Of a stretch of 44,425 nucleotides of DNA, positions 265-44,425 are shown piece after piece. Source of the DNA: Gammaproteobacteria bacterium (GTDB lineage Bacteria > Pseudomonadota > Gammaproteobacteria > SZUA-152). Below the pieces are notes generated by a model. The model was not told the DNA's origin and made no database searches. It saw nothing but the letters and a program-made list of their open reading frames with translations. The stretch's first letter is position 1. Each line of letters begins with the position of its first letter. The position numbers and the translations under genes were made by a program. The DNA lies in NCBI GenBank assembly GCA_032250735.1, contig JAVVEP010000024.1:1-44425 (forward strand), read 5' to 3'.

Positions 265-573
265 ATGACATCACAACGCAGACCCTATAAAACCTATCCC
301 GAAGCCTTTAAGCTTGAAGCCTTGCGCCTGTTGGAGGAATCCGACAGACCTGCCAGTGAGATTGCCAGGCAACTTGGCATCCGTAGAAATCAGCTTTACA
401 AGTGGAAGGAGCAGATGACCAAACAAGGCAAAGTGCCCACCGCTAAACGCGGGCGGCCGAAGAAGGAAGACCAGAGCGAAATGGCCACCTTGAGGCAGGA
501 GTTGAAACGGCTTCGGGAGGAAAACGAAATCCTAAAAAAAGCCGCGGCGTACTTTGCGAAGGAACTCAAGTGA
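265..573 (+). CDS. IS3-family transposase OrfA
   Basis: A 102-aa helix-turn-helix protein that binds the ends of its element. The N-terminal half (about residues 10-50) carries an HTH_Tnp_1-type fold, with a typical EIARQLGIRRNQLYKWK recognition segment, and the C-terminal third is a leucine-zipper coiled coil (about 70-95). A good ribosome site (AAAGGAG) precedes the ATG. Codons 91-92 lie in a run of seven A (534-540, read A AAA AAA G), the usual -1 slippery site of IS3 elements. The -1 frame from there is open into OrfB, so a fused OrfAB transposase can be made. Confidence 0.93.
   Translation: MTSQRRPYKTYPEAFKLEALRLLEESDRPASEIARQLGIRRNQLYKWKEQMTKQGKVPTAKRGRPKKEDQSEMATLRQELKRLREENEILKKAAAYFAKELK
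534..541 (+). promoter_or_regulatory. Programmed -1 frameshift site of the IS3 element
   Basis: Seven consecutive A residues followed by G, in the register A AAA AAA relative to OrfA. After a -1 slip, reading continues SRGVLCEGTQ and then the OrfB sequence without a stop. IS3 elements are known to make the OrfAB fusion transposase this way. Confidence 0.75.
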
Positions 574-1433
574 AGTACGCCTTTATCCGGGAACATCATC
601 ACCAGTACCCTTTGGCGAGGCTGTGTGCAGTGCTGGACGTCTCTCGTAGCGGCTACCATGACTGGCTGGATCGACCCGAGAGCGCACGATGCCGTGAAAA
701 CCGCAAGCTGACCGATAAGATCAAACAACACCACCGGCAATCGCGAGGAATCTACGGCTCACCGAAGATCCACAAAGACCTGGTCACGGAAGGCGAGGCC
801 TGTGGTGTTAACCGGGTAGCGCGCCTGATGAAAGAGGCGGCCATTCAATCAAAGATGGCGCGCAGATTTGTCATTACCACTGATTCGAAGAACACCGCGC
901 AGCCCGCACCTGATCTGCTACAGCGACAGTTTATCGTCAAACGGCCGGACACCGCTTGGGTCTCCGATACCACGTTCATCCCCACCCGCGAGGGATGGCT
1001 GTATCTCGCCGTGATTCTAGAGCTCTTCTCTCGTCAGGTGATCGGTTGGTCCATGGGGAATCGGAACAACACTGAGCTGGTGCAAGAGGCCCTGACGATG
1101 GCCATCTGGCGCCGTGGGCAAGTGCGTGACATCATCGTCCATTCCGATCAAGGCAGCACCTATGCCTCGGGTGCGTACCGGCAACAGCTGCGTGATAGCC
1201 AATTGCGTTGCAGCATGAGCCGCAAGGGCGAGTGCCTCGACAACGCGGTGGCCGAAAGCTTCTTCGGTACGCTAAAGAACGAGCTGGTGTATCACGAGGA
1301 TTACCATAGCCGAAATGAGGCCAGGCAAAGTATCTTTGAATACATAGAGGTGTTTTATAATCGGCAACGTCGTCATGCTTCGATAGACTACATGACACCG
1401 GTGGAATTCGAAGCACGATACGAGAGTAATTAA
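570..1433 (+). CDS. IS3-family transposase OrfB (DDE integrase domain)
   Basis: A 287-aa catalytic subunit with an rve-type DDE domain. The presumed triad is D133 (SDTTF), D193 (HSDQG) and E229 (AESFF), giving the D-35-E spacing typical of the family. The N-terminal part has the HTH_21-type segment (RGIYGSPKIH at 59-68). The frame overlaps the end of orfA (GTGA at 570-573) and lies in the -1 frame, so its functional product is expected to be the OrfAB fusion rather than a protein started at this GTG. No internal stop or truncation is seen. Confidence 0.95.
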   Translation: MKYAFIREHHHQYPLARLCAVLDVSRSGYHDWLDRPESARCRENRKLTDKIKQHHRQSRGIYGSPKIHKDLVTEGEACGVNRVARLMKEAAIQSKMARRFVITTDSKNTAQPAPDLLQRQFIVKRPDTAWVSDTTFIPTREGWLYLAVILELFSRQVIGWSMGNRNNTELVQEALTMAIWRRGQVRDIIVHSDQGSTYASGAYRQQLRDSQLRCSMSRKGECLDNAVAESFFGTLKNELVYHEDYHSRNEARQSIFEYIEVFYNRQRRHASIDYMTPVEFEARYESN

Positions 1434-10384: not shown

Positions 10385-11314
10385 ATGACTCAATCCGACA
10401 TTGTCCTCCCCGCCGGCACTGAACTGGAACACTACCGGATCGACCAGACCCTGAATGCGGGCGGGTTTGGCATTGTCTACCTCGCCACCGATCTGCACGC
10501 CGAGCTGCGGGTGGTGATCAAGGAATACATGCCCAACAAGCTGGCCCAGCGACTGCCCGATGGTTTCGTCATGCCGCAGGGCGGTCAGCAGCAGGAACAC
10601 CACAATGAGGGCATGCGCCTGTTTCTGCAAGAAGCCGCGGCGCTGATCAAGCTCAAACATCCCAATATTGTGCGGGTGCTGAATTTCTTCCGCGCCAATG
10701 GCACCGTTTATATGGTGATGGAATATCGCCCAGGCAAGAACCTGCAGGGTTACATCAAGAGCCGCGACGGTAATCTCAGCGAGACCTTTTTAAAAACGAT
10801 CTTTCCGCCCCTGCTTGACGGTCTGCGGCTGGTGCATGAGACGGGTTTTCTGCATCTGGACATCAAACCCGGCAATATCCATCTCTGTCCCGGCGGCATT
10901 CCGCTGCTGCTCGATTTTGGCGCGGTGCATCCGCGCAACACCAGCCGTAAATTACAAGTCAGCCAGGTGGTCACCGCCGGATTTTCGCCGATGGAGCAAT
11001 ACAATCTTGGCGGCTACATCGGCCCCTGGACCGACATCTACGCGATTGGCGCCACCATGCGGGCCTGCATCGAGGGCTGCGCACCCCCGTCCGCCAAGAC
11101 CCGCAATGAAAAGGACAAATTACGCTCCGCCAAGTCCGCCTTTAAACGGCGCTATTCGGCCTCCTTGCTGGAGGCGCTGGATTGGGCGATGGAGATGGAT
11201 CCCCTGTTGCGGCCACAAACGGTCGATGAATTTCTGGCCGTCCTGCAGCGGGAAGATGCCGCCGAAGACAACCTGCTGGACAAGATCGTGCATACCCTGA
11301 CCCGGCCCCTATAA
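10385..11314 (+). CDS. Hanks-type serine/threonine protein kinase (HLD catalytic loop)
   Basis: A 309-aa cytoplasmic kinase with no transmembrane segment or sensor extension; the catalytic domain fills the protein. Visible motifs are the glycine loop NAGGFGIVY (24-32), K46, the presumed alpha-C glutamate E83, catalytic loop HLDIKPGN (157-164) with D159 and N164, DFG (177-179) and GFSPMEQY (199-206). The usual HRD arginine is replaced by leucine, so this is a non-RD kinase and may not depend on activation-loop phosphorylation. The gene ends one base before the PP2C phosphatase gene, so the two form an opposing pair. Targets are unknown. Confidence 0.93.
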   Translation: MTQSDIVLPAGTELEHYRIDQTLNAGGFGIVYLATDLHAELRVVIKEYMPNKLAQRLPDGFVMPQGGQQQEHHNEGMRLFLQEAAALIKLKHPNIVRVLNFFRANGTVYMVMEYRPGKNLQGYIKSRDGNLSETFLKTIFPPLLDGLRLVHETGFLHLDIKPGNIHLCPGGIPLLLDFGAVHPRNTSRKLQVSQVVTAGFSPMEQYNLGGYIGPWTDIYAIGATMRACIEGCAPPSAKTRNEKDKLRSAKSAFKRRYSASLLEALDWAMEMDPLLRPQTVDEFLAVLQREDAAEDNLLDKIVHTLTRPL

Positions 11315-11315
11315 C

Positions 11316-12158
11316 ATGAAGTATCAACTCAGCAAGACCACTCGCCTCGGTAATCGTGTTGTCAACGAAGACCGTATCGGTGTTGTCGAACACGACAATG
11401 CCGTGTTGCTGGTGCTTGCGGATGGCATGGGCGGCTATCGCGGCGGCCAGATTGCCTCCAGGTCGCTGGTCAATCGTATGTTGCGCCAATTTCAGCGTTC
11501 TACCTTACCGGTGGATGATCCTGGCGCCTATCTCAAGGAACTTATCGCGGATGCTCACCTCGCTGTGCTGCGTGCAGGCAATGAGCAGTACCCGCCCATC
11601 GAACCTCGTACTACCTGTGTTGTGTGTCTCATCCAGAATGGCTGCGCCTGGTGGGCGCATGTCGGCGACAGTCGCCTGTATCTGTTTCGCGGCGGCAAAC
11701 CGTGCATGCGCACCACCGATCATTCCCGGATCGAGGAGATGCGTCGCAAGGGTAAACTCAGCGTCGAGGAACTGGACAATCATCCCCAGCGCCATCTGGT
11801 CACTCGCTGTGTGGGCTATCAGAAACACCCCCCGATTCCCACCGTCAGCGAAAAGATTCCGCTGGAAAAATACGACATGATCCTGTTGTGCAGTGATGGT
11901 CTGTGGGGGCCATTAACCGAGGACAGTCTCGCCGATACCCTGAGCCAGAACACCCTGGATCAGGCAGTAGAGCGCATTGCCTACCAGGCCGAATTTCGCA
12001 GCTACCCGGCGGCTGACAACATCAGCCTCATCACCTTCCGCTGGATTTCCGATGAGATTACGCCGCCGCAAAAACCAGAAAAGGTCGACACTGAACCCGA
12101 TGAATTAATGCAGACGCTGGATGCGCTGGATCACGCCCTGGGCAAACAAGATTCCTGA
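11316..12158 (+). CDS. PP2C-family serine/threonine phosphatase
   Basis: A 280-aa metal-dependent phosphatase. Metal-binding motifs are complete: NEDR (D19), LADGMGG (D36), HVGDSR (D118), CSDGLWG (D194) and AADNISL (D234). A C-terminal tail of about 35 residues (from 246) is charged and probably flexible. It lies one base after the kinase stop, so translation is likely coupled, and it presumably reverses phosphorylation by that kinase. Convergent with radC, whose stop is 18 bases away. Confidence 0.94.
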   Translation: MKYQLSKTTRLGNRVVNEDRIGVVEHDNAVLLVLADGMGGYRGGQIASRSLVNRMLRQFQRSTLPVDDPGAYLKELIADAHLAVLRAGNEQYPPIEPRTTCVVCLIQNGCAWWAHVGDSRLYLFRGGKPCMRTTDHSRIEEMRRKGKLSVEELDNHPQRHLVTRCVGYQKHPPIPTVSEKIPLEKYDMILLCSDGLWGPLTEDSLADTLSQNTLDQAVERIAYQAEFRSYPAADNISLITFRWISDEITPPQKPEKVDTEPDELMQTLDALDHALGKQDS

Positions 12159-38378: not shown

Positions 38379-39214
38379 AGGGTTCTTCCAACAAGCCATC
38401 CACCGGCCCCGCCACGCATCGCGCCCGCAAGCGTTTCGGGCAGAACTTTCTGGTGGACCCGTATATCGTGGCGGGCATTGTGGCCGCCATCCATCCGCAG
38501 ACCGACGATCACCTGGTGGAGATCGGCCCCGGCCTGGGCGTGCTGACCGAGGCGTTGTTGCCCTGCGTAACGGCGATGGATGCCATCGAACTGGACCGGG
38601 ACATCATTCCCAAACTGGCGGCAAACTGTCGTGACAAGGGTCAGCTGCAGATCCATGCGATTGATGCCCTGCGCTTTGATTTCGCCTCGCTGGCGGGCGA
38701 TGGCCGTCCCTTACGCATCGTCGGCAATCTGCCCTACAACATTTCCACGCCGCTGATGTTTCATCTGCTGGAACGGCATGAAGTGATTAAGGACATGCAC
38801 TTCATGTTACAGAAGGAGGTGGTAGACCGGCTCGCCGCCACGCCAAACACCAAAAGCTACGGCCGGCTAAGTGTCGCCATGCAGTACCACTGTCGGGTTG
38901 AGTCGCTGATGGATGTGCCGCCGGAATCCTTTTCTCCGGCGCCCAAGGTCCATTCCGCGGTGGTGCGACTGGTGCCGTATCAACAGCCGCCGGTGGCCGT
39001 GGATAACACAAGGGTGTTCGAGACGCTGGTGACGCAGGCCTTTTCCCAGCGCCGCAAAACCCTGCGCAATACCCTCAAGCCGATGATCAGCGCAGAGCGG
39101 ATGGAGGCGGTGGGCATCGATCCGCAGCGACGGGCAGAGACCCTGAGCCTGCAGGAATTCGCCACGCTGGCCAATGCGGTTGCCGCTCACGGTAGCGGGC
39201 GCACGGAAGCATAA
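38375..39214 (+). CDS. rsmA: 16S rRNA dimethyladenosine transferase
   Basis: A 279-aa enzyme that dimethylates two adjacent adenines (A1518/A1519) in the 3' loop of 16S rRNA. Motifs are FGQNFL (21-26), SAM-binding EIGPGLG (49-55) and catalytic NLPYNIS (118-124), with a C-terminal helical domain (SQRRKTLRNTLK). No Shine-Dalgarno is seen before ATG 38375, but a 13-codon frame ends ATGA across it. Last of the conserved lptD-surA-pdxA-rsmA run; apaG/apaH, the usual next genes, are absent. Confidence 0.97.
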   Translation: MKGSSNKPSTGPATHRARKRFGQNFLVDPYIVAGIVAAIHPQTDDHLVEIGPGLGVLTEALLPCVTAMDAIELDRDIIPKLAANCRDKGQLQIHAIDALRFDFASLAGDGRPLRIVGNLPYNISTPLMFHLLERHEVIKDMHFMLQKEVVDRLAATPNTKSYGRLSVAMQYHCRVESLMDVPPESFSPAPKVHSAVVRLVPYQQPPVAVDNTRVFETLVTQAFSQRRKTLRNTLKPMISAERMEAVGIDPQRRAETLSLQEFATLANAVAAHGSGRTEA

Positions 39215-39216
39215 GC

Positions 39217-39993
39217 ATGGCGGTGGGCATCGGCGGTGTGCTGGAACAACTCATTTTACCGCCGGGTGGTTTTATTATTGCAGCCCTGCTGGGCCTGCTG
39301 CTGATGCCGCGCTACCCGCGCAGCGGACGCCATATAGCATTAAGTAGTCTTGCCTTGCTGTATCTCGTCAGTCTGCCCATCAGTGCCACGCTATTGTTGT
39401 CCTGGCTGGAGCCCGTAACTGCCCTCTCACCGAAGGTAGTCAGCGAGACGACAGAACAGCCCCCGCAGGCGATCGTGATTCTGGGTGCGGGTCGGCGTCA
39501 CGACAGTCCCGAATATGGCGGCGACATACCCAATGCGATGGCGCTGGAACGGATACGTTACGGGGTCTGGCTGGCGCGCCGCAGCCTGTTACCGGTATTG
39601 GTAAGCGGCGGTCTGGGTGATGACGAACATCCGTCCGAGGCACAGATGATGCAGCAACTCATCGAAGAGGAATATGCCCTGGCCGTGCGCTGGCACGAAA
39701 CGCAGAGCCACACCACCTATGAAAATGCAAAATACGCGAGCGACATCTTAAAGGCAGAAGGCATCACCTCGATCTACCTGGTCACCCATGCCCTGCACAT
39801 GCCGCGCAGCGTAAAATCCTTCGAGAAGTTCGGGATCATCGTGCATCCCGCCCCCACCGCCTTCGGCGGTAGCAGTCAACGCGAACTGGAGCTGTCGGCC
39901 TTTCTGCCCAGCGCCAGGGCACTGCATCAGACCAGCATGGTCTTCCACGAGTGGGTGGGTATGCTGTGGTATCGCCTGCGTTACGGCGTCTAG
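39217..39993 (+). CDS. YdcF/ElyC-family membrane protein (DUF218)
   Basis: A 258-aa protein with two N-terminal membrane segments (about 13-30 and 40-63) and a DUF218 domain (about 84-240; AIVILGAGRR, VSGGL, ETQSHTTYENAKYASDIL, LVTHALHMPRSVKSFEKFGI). E. coli ElyC, of the same family, affects peptidoglycan and envelope precursor metabolism; the substrate is uncertain. It starts three bases after rsmA and is probably in the same transcript. Confidence 0.88.
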   Translation: MAVGIGGVLEQLILPPGGFIIAALLGLLLMPRYPRSGRHIALSSLALLYLVSLPISATLLLSWLEPVTALSPKVVSETTEQPPQAIVILGAGRRHDSPEYGGDIPNAMALERIRYGVWLARRSLLPVLVSGGLGDDEHPSEAQMMQQLIEEEYALAVRWHETQSHTTYENAKYASDILKAEGITSIYLVTHALHMPRSVKSFEKFGIIVHPAPTAFGGSSQRELELSAFLPSARALHQTSMVFHEWVGMLWYRLRYGV

Positions 39994-40072
39994 ATTTTTA
40001 CATCGCCAACCCGGGTCATAACACCCCGTCCCTCATGCAAGCCGTTTGTGATTGGGTAATAATCCCGCGCCA

Positions 40073-40101
40073 TTGACGAGCGCATTTTCCTCTACTATAT
40101 C
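40073..40101 (+). promoter_or_regulatory. Promoter of the S8-peptidase cassette
   Basis: TTGACG (40073-40078) and TATATC (40096-40101) are 17 bases apart. It lies about 120 bases before the first gene of the cassette, giving it an independent transcription start. Confidence 0.55.
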
Positions 40102-40221
40102 TCTAGCCTTGCAAAACACTTACCGAAAAGGATTACTGCGTCAGGCTTGTACTGACGTGCATACCCACAATCGGAATGGACTAGAAATGCACAGGAGTGC
40201 ATCGGGAGCGCACAAAATAAC

Positions 40222-40518
40222 ATGGAAGTTATCATTGAATTAAGCCCGGAGGTCGCGCATCAGTTTCAGGTGCAGGATCAATCCGCCCCCATGGTCAGGC
40301 AACTGACGACCACCATCGATGCGTTACACGTCATCATCAAGCCTCAATATTCAAACCAGCAACCAGGTCACGAAAAAGGAAAGGCCGAAAATTATTTTTT
40401 TGTGATTGAAGCCGGAAATTGGGAAGAGTGCCAGCGTATTGCCACGGTGCTTGACCAACTGCCCGCCGTCAGGGCGGCGTATTGTAAACCCGAGGCAGAA
40501 CCTGCCTCTTTACCTTAA
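40222..40518 (+). CDS. Free-standing subtilase-propeptide-like protein
   Basis: A 98-aa protein without signal peptide or membrane segment. Its C-terminal half (FFVIEAGNWEEC ... LPAVRAAYCKPEAEP, about 54-95) resembles the propeptide-like part of the peptidase next door (YYKVEAPEDKLE ... CGAVEAAYVKPPATP). Both fit the beta-alpha-beta pattern of inhibitor I9/subtilisin prodomains. It may act as an intramolecular-chaperone-like partner or inhibitor in trans. It precedes the peptidase by 23 bases. The ribosome site is weak (GGGAG, 13 bases from ATG). I cannot name a family. Confidence 0.7.
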   Translation: MEVIIELSPEVAHQFQVQDQSAPMVRQLTTTIDALHVIIKPQYSNQQPGHEKGKAENYFFVIEAGNWEECQRIATVLDQLPAVRAAYCKPEAEPASLP

Positions 40519-40541
40519 ACCACTGTCAGGAGGACACGATC

Positions 40542-42338
40542 ATGGCGAGAAAGAAGTCAGCGGAAAAAGGCTCGGCGTTTGCCGAGCACTCTTATGAATT
40601 ACCGCCCAGCGAACTCATTGTAATGGCGAAGAAGGGAGCGGAGCTGCGCTCGCATCAGACTACGGTGAGCTCGCTGTCGGGGGCCGACGTCAAGGACCTG
40701 AGCGCGATCTTGAGCAAGGAAGGGATCACCATGGCGCCGCTGTTTGGTGACAGCGAAGAACAGTTGCAGCAGGAGATGAGCTCAATGGCCGCAGCAGCGA
40801 CCCTCGACGAGGCAATGATGGCTGAGCTGCCCGACCTGTCGCTGTACTACAAGGTGGAGGCACCGGAAGACAAACTGGAGGCACTGGCCGCGAAACTGTG
40901 CGGTTGCGGAGCCGTGGAGGCCGCCTATGTAAAACCACCGGCGACCCCCAGTGAGACGCGCGCCGAATCCATGGCGGAGGAGGCCCCGGAGTTTATCAAC
41001 ATGATGAGTTCCATTGCGGAGGAGGCCGAACCGGCCACCATCAATTTCACGGCACGCCAGGCCTACCTCGGTCCTGCGCCGGCGGGCATCGATGCATACT
41101 ATGCCGCGACACTCAGCGGTGGGCGCGGCGCAGGTGTCGGTATCTGCGATATCGAGGGTGCCTGGCGCTTTACGCATGAAGATCTGCGCGTCAATCAGGG
41201 GGGCGTGGTCGGCGGTACACCGTCAAGCGATATGGGCTGGCGCAATCACGGCACGGCCGTCATCGGCGTGCTCAGCGGTGATCGAAACAGTTTTGGTATT
41301 ACCGGCATTGCCCCCGATGCGCGGATACGCGGCATTTCCATTTTTGGCGGCATGGGCACGGCGGGGGCGATTCGACGCGCGGCACAGGTCTCCAGAAAGG
41401 GCGACATCATCCTGCTGGAATTGCATCGCCCCGGGCCACGTTTTAATTTTCAGGGTCGCAGCGATCAAAAGGGCTATATTGCGATCGAGTGGTGGCCGGA
41501 TGATTTTGCCGCTGTCCGTTATGCCGTCACCATGGGCATGATCGTGGTGGGTGCCGCGGGCAATGGCGCGGAAAATCTGAATGCCTCCATCTACAATACG
41601 CGGCCGGCCGGCTTTCCGAACAGCTGGCGCAACCCCTTCAACCGCAGTGCGGCCGACTCCGGCGCCATCCTGGTGGGCGCGGGCGCCCCGCCGCCCGGCA
41701 CTCACGGTCGCAATCACGGCCCCGACCGCTCCCGCCTGGATTTTTCCAATTACGGTTCGGCGGTGGACGCCCAGGGCTGGGGGCGTGAGGTCACGACCAC
41801 CGGTTACGGGGATCTGCAGGGCGGCAGCAATGAAGACCTCTGGTATACCGATCGCTTCAGCGGCACCTCGAGCGCATCGCCCATCGTGGTAGGCGCACTG
41901 GCCTGCGTACAGGGGGTACTCAAGGCGCGGCGCCGTCCGGTACTGAGTCCGGCGCGGGCGCGCAGTCTGTTGCGCAGTACCGGCAGCGCGCAGACCAGCG
42001 CGACGGGTCGGCCCAGTACACAGCGTATCGGTAGACGCCCCAACCTGCGCCAGCTCGTGCAGTCGGCGTTGTATGAGAATAAATGGATCGGGGTGCAATT
42101 CACGGGGCCGGTGGCGGCGAATGCGACCCAGCGATGGTTTACCCACAGCTGGCCCGAGCATTGGCATGTGGTGTGGAATGTTGTGCCACTGACGCCACGA
42201 TCCGGCGGACCACAGATCGATTTTGATGTGCAGGTGGAACGCGCCAGTGACCAGCATATTACCTACTGGATCACGGTGAAAAACCTGACCAATCAGGCGG
42301 TCAACATCGAGGCACGCTACGCCATTCTGGGCTGGTAA
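40542..42338 (+). CDS. S8-family (subtilisin-like) serine peptidase
   Basis: A 598-aa peptidase. The triad is D203 (GICDIEGAW), H236 (RNHGTAV) and S443 (GTSSASP), with oxyanion N341 (AAGNGA). The N-terminal 180 residues include a flexible basic start and a propeptide-like segment (about 96-135). After the catalytic domain (about 180-510) a beta-rich C-terminal domain of roughly 85 residues (WIGVQFTGPV ... ARYAILGW) matches nothing I recognise. No signal peptide or Tat motif is visible, unlike most secreted subtilases, so it may act in the cytoplasm or leave by another route. An AGGAGG ribosome site precedes the ATG. It lies between the free propeptide-like gene and a 75-aa peptide gene. Confidence 0.93.
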   Translation: MARKKSAEKGSAFAEHSYELPPSELIVMAKKGAELRSHQTTVSSLSGADVKDLSAILSKEGITMAPLFGDSEEQLQQEMSSMAAAATLDEAMMAELPDLSLYYKVEAPEDKLEALAAKLCGCGAVEAAYVKPPATPSETRAESMAEEAPEFINMMSSIAEEAEPATINFTARQAYLGPAPAGIDAYYAATLSGGRGAGVGICDIEGAWRFTHEDLRVNQGGVVGGTPSSDMGWRNHGTAVIGVLSGDRNSFGITGIAPDARIRGISIFGGMGTAGAIRRAAQVSRKGDIILLELHRPGPRFNFQGRSDQKGYIAIEWWPDDFAAVRYAVTMGMIVVGAAGNGAENLNASIYNTRPAGFPNSWRNPFNRSAADSGAILVGAGAPPPGTHGRNHGPDRSRLDFSNYGSAVDAQGWGREVTTTGYGDLQGGSNEDLWYTDRFSGTSSASPIVVGALACVQGVLKARRRPVLSPARARSLLRSTGSAQTSATGRPSTQRIGRRPNLRQLVQSALYENKWIGVQFTGPVAANATQRWFTHSWPEHWHVVWNVVPLTPRSGGPQIDFDVQVERASDQHITYWITVKNLTNQAVNIEARYAILGW

Positions 42339-42357
42339 TCTTAAGGAGGAATAAGCG

Positions 42358-42585
42358 ATGAGAATCACTATTGAAACGCAAAATGAAGGACGGATTCAGC
42401 TGGAATCGGAAACGCTCAGTGAAACACAGACGCAGCAGCAGGCAACCCAGGCCGCCGCGATTGATGGGGGTGGGCCCAGTGATGTGCTGCTGAGCGCCAT
42501 CGCCGGTGCGGCGGGATTCACTGAGGGTGAGGCAGAGGAAGGCGAAGAGATGTTGAGCATGGAGGAGACCTCCGCGTTTCACTGA
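42358..42585 (+). CDS. 75-aa acidic peptide with GGGP segment, candidate peptidase substrate
   Basis: A small protein with a polar, Gln/Glu/Thr-rich N-terminal half (1-33), a central AIDGGGPSDVLLSAIAGAAG segment (34-53) and a strongly acidic C-terminus. The layout, leader then a glycine-rich point then a short hydrophobic core, resembles ribosomally made peptide precursors, but no modifying enzyme is present. A near-perfect ribosome site AAGGAGGA (42343-42350) suggests high expression. It follows the S8 peptidase by 19 bases and ends before a strong terminator, so it belongs to that unit. No family recognised. Confidence 0.7.
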   Translation: MRITIETQNEGRIQLESETLSETQTQQQATQAAAIDGGGPSDVLLSAIAGAAGFTEGEAEEGEEMLSMEETSAFH

Positions 42586-42614
42586 GCCGCAGTAACGGGA
42601 AGTATGTCTTTAAT

Positions 42615-42649
42615 AAAAAACCCTGGGCCAGGTGGGTCCAGGGTTTTTT
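42615..42649. terminator. Bidirectional terminator of the S8 cassette / ppnN
   Basis: AAAAAACCCTGG (42615-42626) pairs with CCAGGGTTTTTT (42638-42649) around an 11-base loop; T-runs flank both strands. It lies between the converging 75-aa peptide gene and ppnN. Confidence 0.93.
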
Positions 42650-42672
42650 TATGGGTGCAATGCGTGAGGCCG

Positions 42673-44043
42673 CTATTTTATGATGCGATAACACGGCACA
42701 TATTGGGTACCGGGCAGTTTCATGCGGTGTTGCTCGACGAAAGAGGCCAGCAGGGCATCGACGGGCTCCATAATGTCGGCATCGCCATGAATCTCGAACA
42801 GCCCATGCTGTTCCACGGCGCGGATACCGTCGTCTTTCACATTGCCGGCGACAATTCCGGAGAAGGCACGCCGCAGGTTGGCCGCCAGGGTATGGTTCGG
42901 CAGGCTCTTGTGCAGCACAAGATTGCGCATATTGTCATGCGTCGGTTCAAACGGCTGCTGGAAGTCCTTGTCGATCTTCAGCAGCCAGTTGAAATAATAG
43001 GCATCGCCATGGGTGCGGCGAAAATCGCGCACCTCCTGAATGCCGGCGTGCATCTCGCGCGCCACGCGGGCGGGATCATTGATGATCACCTTGTAACGCT
43101 GTTGCGCCTCGATGCCGAGGGTGTCGGCAATGAACTGATTGACGCCGATAAAAAATGCCTCGGCACTCGCCGGCCCGGTGAGGATGAGGGGAAAGGGGAG
43201 ATCCTTGTTGGCGGGGTGCAGCAGAATACCCAGCAGATACAGCAGCTCTTCCGTGGTACCGGCGCCGCCGGGAAACACCACGATGCCATGCCCGGTGCGC
43301 ACAAAGGCCTCAAGCCGTTTTTCGATGTCCGGCATAATCACCAGATCATTGACGATAGGGTTGGGGGATTCGGCGGCGATGATGCCCGGCTCGGAGATGC
43401 CGAGGTACTGGCCGTCATCAAGCCGCTGCTTGGCATGGCCGATGGTCGCGCCCTTCATGGGGCCCTTCATGGCGCCAGGGCCGCAGCCGGTACAGATGTC
43501 TAGACCGCGCAGGCCCAGCTCATGGCCCACCTCCTTGGTGTAATCGTATTCCTTGCGGGTAATCGAATGTCCGCCCCAGCACACCACCAGATTGGGGTTG
43601 GTGTTGGGCCGCAGGATATTGGCATTGCGCAGGATATGAAACACGGCGTTGGTGATGCCGTCGGAGCAGTCCATATCAAACTTCGGATTATCGTTGATCT
43701 CATCACTGACATAGATCACATCGCGCAGCACCGAAAACAGGTGCTCACTAATGCCGCGGATCATCACCCCGTCGACAAAGGCATTGACCGGCGCGTTTTT
43801 CACCTCCAGCTTGATGCCGCGGGCCTGTTGCACCACGCGAATGTCAAAGCTCTTATAGCGCTCCAGCAGCTGCTTGCCGTCATCCATCTGGTTGCCGCAA
43901 TTGAGCACCGCCAGCGAACAGTTGCGGAAGATGTTGTATAGCCCGCCCTGGCTGGTATCCAGCAGCTTGCCAACCTCGACCTTGGACAACACATCCAGAC
44001 GACCTTCCGGGGTAATGCGTGCATCGATGACAGCTGGCTTCAT
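42673..44043 (-). CDS. ppnN: Pyrimidine/purine nucleotide 5'-monophosphate nucleosidase
   Basis: A 456-aa cytoplasmic enzyme of the LOG-like family (E. coli YgdH, 454 aa) that splits nucleoside monophosphates into base and ribose 5-phosphate and is controlled by ppGpp in E. coli. The N-terminal regulatory domain begins with DARITPEGRLDVLSKVEV; the catalytic LOG motif is PGGAGTTEELLYLLGIL, with ICTGCGPGAMKGPMKGA upstream forming the nucleotide pocket. Starts at ATG 44043 and stands alone on the minus strand. Confidence 0.95.
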   Translation of the reverse strand: MKPAVIDARITPEGRLDVLSKVEVGKLLDTSQGGLYNIFRNCSLAVLNCGNQMDDGKQLLERYKSFDIRVVQQARGIKLEVKNAPVNAFVDGVMIRGISEHLFSVLRDVIYVSDEINDNPKFDMDCSDGITNAVFHILRNANILRPNTNPNLVVCWGGHSITRKEYDYTKEVGHELGLRGLDICTGCGPGAMKGPMKGATIGHAKQRLDDGQYLGISEPGIIAAESPNPIVNDLVIMPDIEKRLEAFVRTGHGIVVFPGGAGTTEELLYLLGILLHPANKDLPFPLILTGPASAEAFFIGVNQFIADTLGIEAQQRYKVIINDPARVAREMHAGIQEVRDFRRTHGDAYYFNWLLKIDKDFQQPFEPTHDNMRNLVLHKSLPNHTLAANLRRAFSGIVAGNVKDDGIRAVEQHGLFEIHGDADIMEPVDALLASFVEQHRMKLPGTQYVPCYRIIK

Positions 44044-44425
44044 GGTATCTCTCTGTTAATGTAGCGTATCTTATATAACATACCACTGGCAGCGACTCTC
44101 GGCGACTGGCGATGGTGCGAGTTGCGCCATATGCTGCAAAGGCGGATCAGATTATATCAATTGATTAAGTGGTCAATGGGTCCATGTATTGCAAACGAAA
44201 AGCGGCATAGGTTGCATATTTCACCAGATATTGACGCATAGGCTGTAATAATTTTTAAACTGATAATTTTTTGCTAAGGTCTGAAATGCAGTGCGATTTC
44301 AATCATTGAGCAAATATCAGAGGCCCTTACAATTAAGTACATTTTTTGGGCAGTGTTCAAAATGTTTTTCGAGGGCGTTCAAAATTCTGTGTCAGCCTAG
44401 GCGGTTAGATTTCCAGAACGCCATC
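44044..44425. other. AT-rich right edge, possible end of an insertion sequence
   Basis: 382 bases without a gene. The ppnN promoter should lie in the first 100. From about 44351 the sequence contains GTTCAAAAT twice (44356 and 44380), and the second, read on the minus strand, gives CACAGAATTTTGAAC, similar to terminal repeats of IS256-type elements. A short minus-strand frame ending MAFWKSNRLG crosses the right edge. The window stops too soon to decide. Confidence 0.3.

What the first reader, a model, noticed from the sequence alone, without database searches (positions are those of the whole stretch)
40073..42649. Self-contained cassette: free propeptide-like protein, unsecreted S8 peptidase, acidic small peptide
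Three co-oriented genes with gaps of 23 and 19 bases have their own promoter (TTGACG-N17-TATATC) and a strong terminator. The peptidase triad is complete but it has no signal peptide, its first partner resembles a subtilase propeptide, and the last gene is a small peptide with an excellent ribosome site. A peptidase encoded with both a possible inhibitor/chaperone and a possible substrate suggests a dedicated maturation, signalling or conflict system. I know of no described system of this layout.
Basis: partly seen in the sequence, partly recalled or inferred. Interest (0 to 1): 0.75.

Follow-up and report, generated by a model that had tools for sequence, protein, structure and literature searches.

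The report
Protease cassette with separate inhibitor copy
A small, mobile gene cassette found in scattered bacteria and archaea encodes a subtilisin-type protease that is not exported, a free copy of its own built-in inhibitor domain and a short repeat-bearing peptide; they travel together, which makes an undescribed self-regulated protease system likely.

Summary
The three genes, their gaps (23 and 19 bases), the triad (D203/H236/S443), the missing signal peptide and a strong terminator hairpin are real; the promoter is not better than chance. Free relatives of the 98-aa protein (A) lie within 700 bases of the peptidase in 44 of 81 loci and nowhere else in the flanks; in 23 genomes all 43 profile matches are at the peptidase locus. 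The 75-aa peptide (C) belongs to one sub-type whose peptidase ends in an 85-aa beta-sandwich ("JR"): found in 14 of 14 JR loci (one by eye, one by motif only), 0 of 68 others. A, S8-JR and C together: 11 of 14. C carries 1-5 copies of a D[AG]GxPP/S-like motif. Best reading: a horizontally moving zymogen held by a cis prodomain and a trans inhibitor, with JR binding C. Whether C is substrate, tether or signal is unknown. In some lineages A looks exported though the peptidase does not, so an effector-immunity reading stays open.

The parts
   Evidence: 5/6 and 4/6 to consensus by eye; not listed by the scan, 1.6 sites expected by chance
40222..40518 (+). gene A: 98-aa free prodomain-like protein (trans copy), predicted inhibitor/chaperone of S8
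40542..42338 (+). gene S8: 598-aa subtilase without signal peptide
   Evidence: PF00082 61.3 bits; model pLDDT 89.0, pTM 0.84
40611..40946 (+). fused prodomain of S8, residues about 24-135, homologous to A
41037..42077 (+). S8 catalytic domain, residues 166-512; D203 at 41148, H236 at 41247, S443 at 41868
42081..42335 (+). JR domain: 85-aa C-terminal beta-sandwich; a free copy follows S8 in 11 of 14 JR-type loci (not in the window)
42358..42585 (+). gene C: 75-aa acidic peptide, MRITIE start
42463..42501 (+). conserved motif of C, DGGGPSDVLLSAI (residues 36-48)
42615..42649 (+). hairpin with U-run, likely rho-independent terminator
   Evidence: not listed by the scan

Best explanation
The cassette is a self-contained, horizontally moving protease module. 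S8 is made in the cytoplasm as a zymogen whose own N-terminal prodomain sits on the active site (modelled). Gene A supplies a second, free copy of that prodomain; its C-terminus stops where the fused chain would run on through the cleft, so it looks like an already processed, product-like tail and should act in trans as a folding helper and tight inhibitor that caps any processed S8. The C-terminal JR beta-sandwich is a recognition module (in relatives replaced by hemopexin, FG-GAP or other modules, in several cases with a free copy in the next gene). Peptide C, an acidic, probably disordered chain with 1-5 copies of a D[AG]GxPP/S-like motif, is the dedicated JR ligand: it tethers S8-JR (and free JR) and is the first candidate for cleavage when inhibition is released. 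Shown by computation: gene linkage, homology of A to the fused domain, predicted docking of the fused domain, JR-C linkage. Inferred: inhibition by A, JR-C binding, cleavage of C, any trigger.
For: A-like ORFs outside S8 in 44 of 81 loci, all within 700 bases, none further off in the flanks (21 of the 44 are in the profile itself). In 23 genomes all 43 matches at E<=0.01 are the free A or the fused domain. A against fused domain: probability 98.7, E 3e-16. The S8 model aligns over 23-511 to unprocessed pro-Tk-subtilisin (2z2z: Z 32.6, 337 residues, 3.2 A) and over 23-507 to pro-subtilisin E (3whi_A: Z 32.0, 333 residues, 2.9 A). A tails end 5-6 residues after Y-x-K-P in 19 of 22. C profile (built from 9 of the loci): 13 of 14 JR loci at E<=0.01, Haloferax by eye, 0 of 68 non-JR loci. 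In 13 genomes/records, the 11 with a C match at E<=0.01 have it at the S8 locus and nowhere else. JR is found only at S8 loci in samples of 398, 301 and 247 genomes (1, 3 and 1 genomes with a match). Motif 29 times in 14 peptides, shuffles mean 0.48, maximum 4 in 2000. One motif in each of the 3 loci without free JR, two or more in 9 of 11 with it. No further gene family shared by the JR flanks was seen except an ABC ATPase in 3 loci (four members shown per cluster). The JR label needs at least 3 changes on the S8 tree, and C goes with JR each time.
Against: No biochemical test; no complex could be modelled. A reaches no Pfam profile at E<=1. No A in 37 of 81 loci, among them Streptomyces, Nocardia and Paenibacillus (at least five are contig ends), so S8 can do without it. 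In Chloroflexi and some Bacteroidota A has a lipoprotein-like or hydrophobic start although S8 has none, which does not fit a cytoplasmic inhibitor there. The motif was defined after seeing the sequences; the motif-number/free-JR link is p 0.027 uncorrected and 0.055 with close lineages merged. C in L043 rests on the motif alone (E 0.0015, 0.0106). JR fold matches are borderline (best Z 8.0). Base composition gives no clear sign of import (A 50%, S8 62%, C 58%, flanks 61 and 58% GC).
Confidence: 0.5

Rival explanations
1. Effector-immunity pair: S8 acts outside the producing cell's cytoplasm (released by lysis or an unrecognised route), its C-terminal modules bind target surfaces, and A is the immunity protein that protects the producer.
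For: A relatives carry lipoprotein-like or hydrophobic starts in about 10 of 44 loci by eye (Chloroflexi L035, L036, L099; Bacteroidota L100-102, L104, L106, L108; gammaproteobacterial bin L111). A strict lipobox pattern flags 4 (L035, L036, L099, L102), and in the three Chloroflexi its first match lies upstream of the coding start, the lipobox in the leader being read by eye. S8 has no signal there (not testable in L111, whose S8 start is cut off). C-terminal modules are of binding type: hemopexin, FG-GAP, DUF5648. Patchy, horizontally moving distribution. Subtilisins are listed as processing proteases in polymorphic toxin systems (PMC3482391, passages).
Against: A of the window has no signal (by eye). 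No trafficking domain found on S8. Contractile sheath PF04984 is absent from 8 of 13 JR genomes, the window's among them. No PADLOC match at E<=1.
Confidence: 0.2
2. Peptide maturation: C is a precursor with repeated core motifs and S8 is its dedicated protease, as in RiPP systems with S8 leader peptidases; A only keeps S8 quiet until C is made.
For: C has a conserved leader-like start (MRI-IE) and a motif repeated up to 5 times; in a sister S8 group a RimK-like ATP-grasp gene follows S8. S8 proteases process lanthipeptides and cyanobactins (passages of PMC10885120).
Against: No modifying enzyme shared by the JR loci was seen; window neighbours look like core genes (by eye). C follows JR rather than the S8 domain. 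No exporter in the cassette.
Confidence: 0.17
3. Ordinary intracellular subtilisin for stationary-phase protein turnover; A is a redundant prodomain and C a small accessory of no specific role.
For: S8 is unsecreted; intracellular subtilisins with inhibitory pro-regions are known (PMC6220982, start of abstract in listing).
Against: No match in the 11 other genomes of the genus searched, several incomplete; in a class sample strong relatives (E < 1e-30) in only 4 of 368 other genomes, so not housekeeping; A and C are tied to the S8 locus across phyla.
Confidence: 0.1

Closest known systems
Stand-alone subtilisin-propeptide-like inhibitors: SUB1-ProM of Plasmodium, TgMIC5 (passages of PMC6993865); yeast Pbi2 and POIA1 (recalled; POIA1 complex 1v5i appears)
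   Same: free prodomain fold acting in trans on a subtilase
   Different: here the free copy is bacterial/archaeal, encoded beside the protease whose own prodomain it resembles, and the protease keeps its fused copy
Bacillus intracellular subtilisin (ISP) with its inhibitor IPI (starts of abstracts of PMC6220982 and PMC3901451 in listing)
   Same: unsecreted subtilase with regulated activity and a separate inhibitor
   Different: ISP has a short LIPY-type extension (recalled) and IPI an Ig-like fold; here a full prodomain in cis and in trans, plus JR and C
Pro-Tk-subtilisin and pro-subtilisin E (PDB 2z2z, 3whi)
   Same: prodomain-catalytic domain arrangement
   Different: secreted enzymes (recalled) without trans copy, JR or C
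RiPP systems with S8 peptidases (NisP, ElxP, PatA/PatG; PMC10885120 passages) and graspetide branches 7/8 with peptidases (PMC8939145 passages)
   Same: S8 or other peptidases beside short peptides or ATP-grasp enzymes
   Different: no modifying enzyme seen in JR loci; C has no Pfam or NCBIfam match at E<=1

Membership tests
Peptidase family S8 (subtilases) | PF00082 over curated cut-off | tested here: met
   61.3 bits against 21.8
Peptidase family S8 (subtilases) | D-H-S triad and oxyanion Asn in a subtilisin fold | tested here: met
Inhibitor family I9 (subtilisin prodomain/inhibitor) | sequence profile match of A | tested here: not met
   0 Pfam families for A at E<=1
Inhibitor family I9 (subtilisin prodomain/inhibitor) | prodomain position and fold (fused domain of S8) | tested here: met
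   model residues 23-511 on unprocessed pro-subtilisins; A homologous to this domain; A itself was not modelled
Inhibitor family I9 (subtilisin prodomain/inhibitor) | inhibition of the cognate subtilase by A | not testable with these tools
   needs enzyme assay
Intracellular subtilisin (ISP) | no signal peptide | tested here: met
   window protein by eye; relatives' N-termini listed
Intracellular subtilisin (ISP) | short N-terminal pro-extension with LIPY-type motif instead of a prodomain (recalled) | tested here: not met
   a full prodomain is fused; no LIPY at the N-terminus of the window protein
T7SS mycosin | NCBIfam TIGR03921 over cut-off | tested here: not met
   31.7 bits against 278.75
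RiPP biosynthetic cluster | precursor with a modifying enzyme in the locus | tested here: not met
   no extra gene family shared by three or more JR lineages apart from an ABC ATPase in 3 loci (frames of 60 aa or more, blastp E<=1e-6, four members shown per cluster)
RiPP biosynthetic cluster | peptide cleaved by the locus protease | not testable with these tools
   needs mass spectrometry
Effector-immunity (polymorphic toxin-like) | adjacent cognate inhibitor gene | tested here: inconclusive
   A lies beside S8 in 44 of 81 loci, but that it inhibits is not tested
Effector-immunity (polymorphic toxin-like) | recognisable export route for the effector | tested here: inconclusive
   no signal peptide; sheath PF04984 in 5 of 13 JR genomes, not in the window's; T6SS sheath family not tested
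Known anti-phage defence systems | match in PADLOC-DB | tested here: not met
   0 families at E<=1 for the 3 proteins

The most novel reading that the evidence does not exclude
A cross-domain, mobile protease system of a new kind, in which both ends of a non-exported subtilase are duplicated as free genes: the prodomain as a trans-acting inhibitor or immunity protein, and the exchangeable C-terminal recognition module downstream. A dedicated multivalent peptide (C) assembles fused and free modules through a repeated D[AG]GxPP/S-like motif and is the signal or substrate that is released.
Probability: 0.27. Interest if true: 0.82.

Novelty: new variant of a known kind. Interest (0 to 1): 0.6.

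Why it matters
It gives a bacterial and archaeal case in which a protease keeps its cis prodomain and also has a free copy in trans, so the roles of the propeptide as chaperone and as inhibitor can be separated genetically. The strict pairing of an unnamed beta-sandwich domain with a motif-bearing peptide predicts a specific domain-peptide interaction that can be tested with two small proteins. If the exported-looking A proteins are immunity proteins, it would be a subtilase effector guarded by its own prodomain.

Tried and rejected
Phage origin: 8 stretches of viral contigs matched a pattern of the S8 alignment, none encodes a relative. JR paralogues in the window's genome: none. Relatives of A in plasmids by tblastn: none at E<=1. 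RNA families at 39000-44425: none at gathering score. JR against PDB sequences: one match, E 0.95. A profile against PDB sequences: best E 0.0089, a designed binder; N-domain profile: best 0.035, then ribosomal S6 chains; neither named a family. JR fold: GOLD domains, the Tk-SP C-terminal domain, H-type lectins and tail fibres at Z about 5-8, too weak to name a family. The first test for free copies of the C-terminal module missed the JR copies in L035, L038 and L099 because frames overlapping the S8 end were left out; the JR profile search is the one counted. Of the 79 genome loci, 46 went with the window into the 47-row alignment, the model and the tree; left out were proteins over 700 aa, cut-off ones, 5 whose frame my script could not call (L073, L078, L081, L090, L112) and 8 dropped by hand from the 54 (L064, L067, L074, L075, L080, L086, L088, L094). 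The scan that found the loci used six peptide patterns of the window protein, one of them in JR, so the share of JR loci (12 of 79) is no prevalence. The eCIS survey PMC8213781 (passages) names hemopexin among predicted eCIS effector domains and holds no 'subtilisin' in its text.

Full report
OBSERVATION. The window (contig C24 of a 3.43-Mb genome) carries A (98 aa), S8 (598 aa) and C (75 aa) with gaps of 23 and 19 bases. The hairpin at 42615-42649 folds far better than shuffles although the consensus scan does not list it; the promoter is not better than chance. The neighbours look like core genes by eye (surA-, pdxA-, ksgA- and DUF218-like on one side, ppnN-like on the other; names recalled). 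Of six relatives whose ppnN region I fetched, one (G011) keeps ksgA and DUF218 beside ppnN; its slot holds other genes (cupin-like and histidine-kinase-like by eye) and no S8; in the other five these neighbours are not in the stretch. None of 11 other genomes of the genus has an S8 match. So the cassette is accessory. Its base composition gives no clear sign of import.

RELATIVES. One scan of the species genomes gave 79 loci from many bacterial phyla and two methanogenic archaea, best segments 41-70% identical; 17 plasmid records have a match, two covering at least 80% (Haloferax 58%, Nostoc 62%). I worked with the 79 plus those two plasmid loci (L113, L114), 81 in all. A tree of 47 catalytic domains pairs a Methanotrichaceae archaeon with a Bacteroidota species at 100/100 and a Nitrospira with a Methanosarcina at 99/91: horizontal movement, with the caveat that several are metagenome bins.

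GENE A. A profile from 22 sequences (window and 21 loci) finds A-like ORFs outside S8 in 44 of 81 loci at E<=0.01: 28 upstream on the same strand, 9 downstream on the same strand, 7 on the opposite strand; none further than 700 bases away in the flanks held (at most about 6-7 kb). Genome-wide in 23 genomes, most of them behind loci of that profile, there are 43 matches at E<=0.01, all at the S8 locus: the free A and/or the domain fused in S8. Profile-profile comparison of A with the fused domain: probability 98.7, E 3e-16. In the 22 sequences the chain ends 5-6 residues after Y-x-K-P in 19, 8 residues in 2 (the window and L048) and 13 in 1; the fused chain runs on there to the catalytic domain. 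My inference: free A mimics a processed propeptide tail.

THE PEPTIDASE. The model (47 rows, pLDDT 89.0, pTM 0.84) aligns with unprocessed pro-Tk-subtilisin over residues 23-511 (Z 32.6) and with pro-subtilisin E (Z 32.0), so the fused N-domain is placed as a prodomain; the highest Z (StmPr1, 34.3) is to a catalytic domain alone. At the junction P132 is invariant and A128, Y129 and K131 nearly so.

C-TERMINAL MODULES. The last 85 residues (JR) form a confident six-stranded beta-sandwich (pLDDT 93.7) without a clear known relative. JR ends the S8 in 12 of the 79 genome loci, in Haloferax and in the window: 14 (the scan favoured it, see Tried and rejected). A free JR gene follows in 11 of 14; not in the window, L034 or L043. 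Other S8 relatives end in FG-GAP repeats (L045, L065), hemopexin repeats (L100, L104), DUF5648 (L057) or DUF6623 (L042), or K/E-rich tails. Free downstream copies of non-JR C-terminal modules were found in L049, L052, L060, L091 and the Streptomyces loci L066, L067, L074, L080, L089; most other module types showed none.

PEPTIDE C. A profile built from 9 of the loci finds it at E<=0.01 in 13 of 14 JR loci (L069 and L043 weakly; L043 has the motif but not the MRI-IE start) and in 0 of 68 other loci. In Haloferax it is a frame with five motif copies, read by eye (E 0.057). Of 13 genomes and records searched, 11 have a match at E<=0.01, each at the S8 locus only; L043 (0.0106) and Haloferax lie just above, also at the S8 locus; weaker unlinked matches begin at E 0.02. 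The motif [DN][AGV]Gx[PAS][PSA] occurs 29 times in the 14 peptides against 0.48 in shuffles (maximum 4 in 2000); I defined it after seeing the sequences. The three loci without free JR have one copy each; of the 11 with free JR, 9 have two or more (hypergeometric 0.027; 0.055 after merging close lineages). A, S8-JR and C together: 11 of 14; L040 and L113 lack A, and L043's contig starts 294 bases before S8.

WHAT SPEAKS AGAINST. A is not seen in 37 of 81 loci. In Chloroflexi (L035, L036, L099) and several Bacteroidota, A starts with a lipoprotein-like or hydrophobic leader (about 10 of 44 loci by eye) and S8 does not. There A cannot be a simple cytoplasmic partner, which keeps the effector-immunity reading alive. 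Contractile sheath genes are absent from the window's genome.

LITERATURE. Stand-alone propeptide-like inhibitors are described in parasites (PMC6993865, passages). Ten searches of the open-licence library gave no bacterial cassette of this layout; not all were aimed at it, and the library lacks most subscription journals. The graspetide survey reports ATP-grasp branches 7 and 8 tied to peptidases of several families without known precursors (PMC8939145, passages).

Noticed in passing
L047:7947-9598, L061:7805-9366 (similar first genes after S8 in L046, L053, L056): Downstream of S8 with a K/E-rich C-terminal tail lies a two-gene unit whose second protein is a RimK-like ATP-grasp (L047 and L061). 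It may be branch 8 of the graspetide survey, which lacks known precursors; the charged S8 tail (KDxKDxE) could be the missing substrate.
   Followed up: partly
L113:7017-7658: Haloferax mediterranei reading frame (213 aa; motifs counted in its first 163) with five [DN][AG]G-x-x-P motifs, a relative of C; the PLSDB gene table lists only its last 50 residues.
   Followed up: partly
L066, L067, L074, L080, L089 downstream of S8: Streptomyces S8 relatives are followed by a glutamine-rich protein that matches the S8 C-terminal 74 residues.
   Followed up: no
L079:4494-5324: S8 is followed by an acidic repeat protein (GPDLPTEML-like repeats) and then A, in another order than in the window.
   Followed up: no
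window 570-1433: IS3-type transposase (by eye) near the left end of the window.
   Followed up: no
window 10385-12158: Adjacent protein kinase-like and PP2C phosphatase-like genes (by eye).
   Followed up: no
L058:5489-5886: A short lipoprotein-like ORF overlaps the start of A in another frame in Lunatibacter; frameshift or separate leader gene unclear.
   Followed up: no
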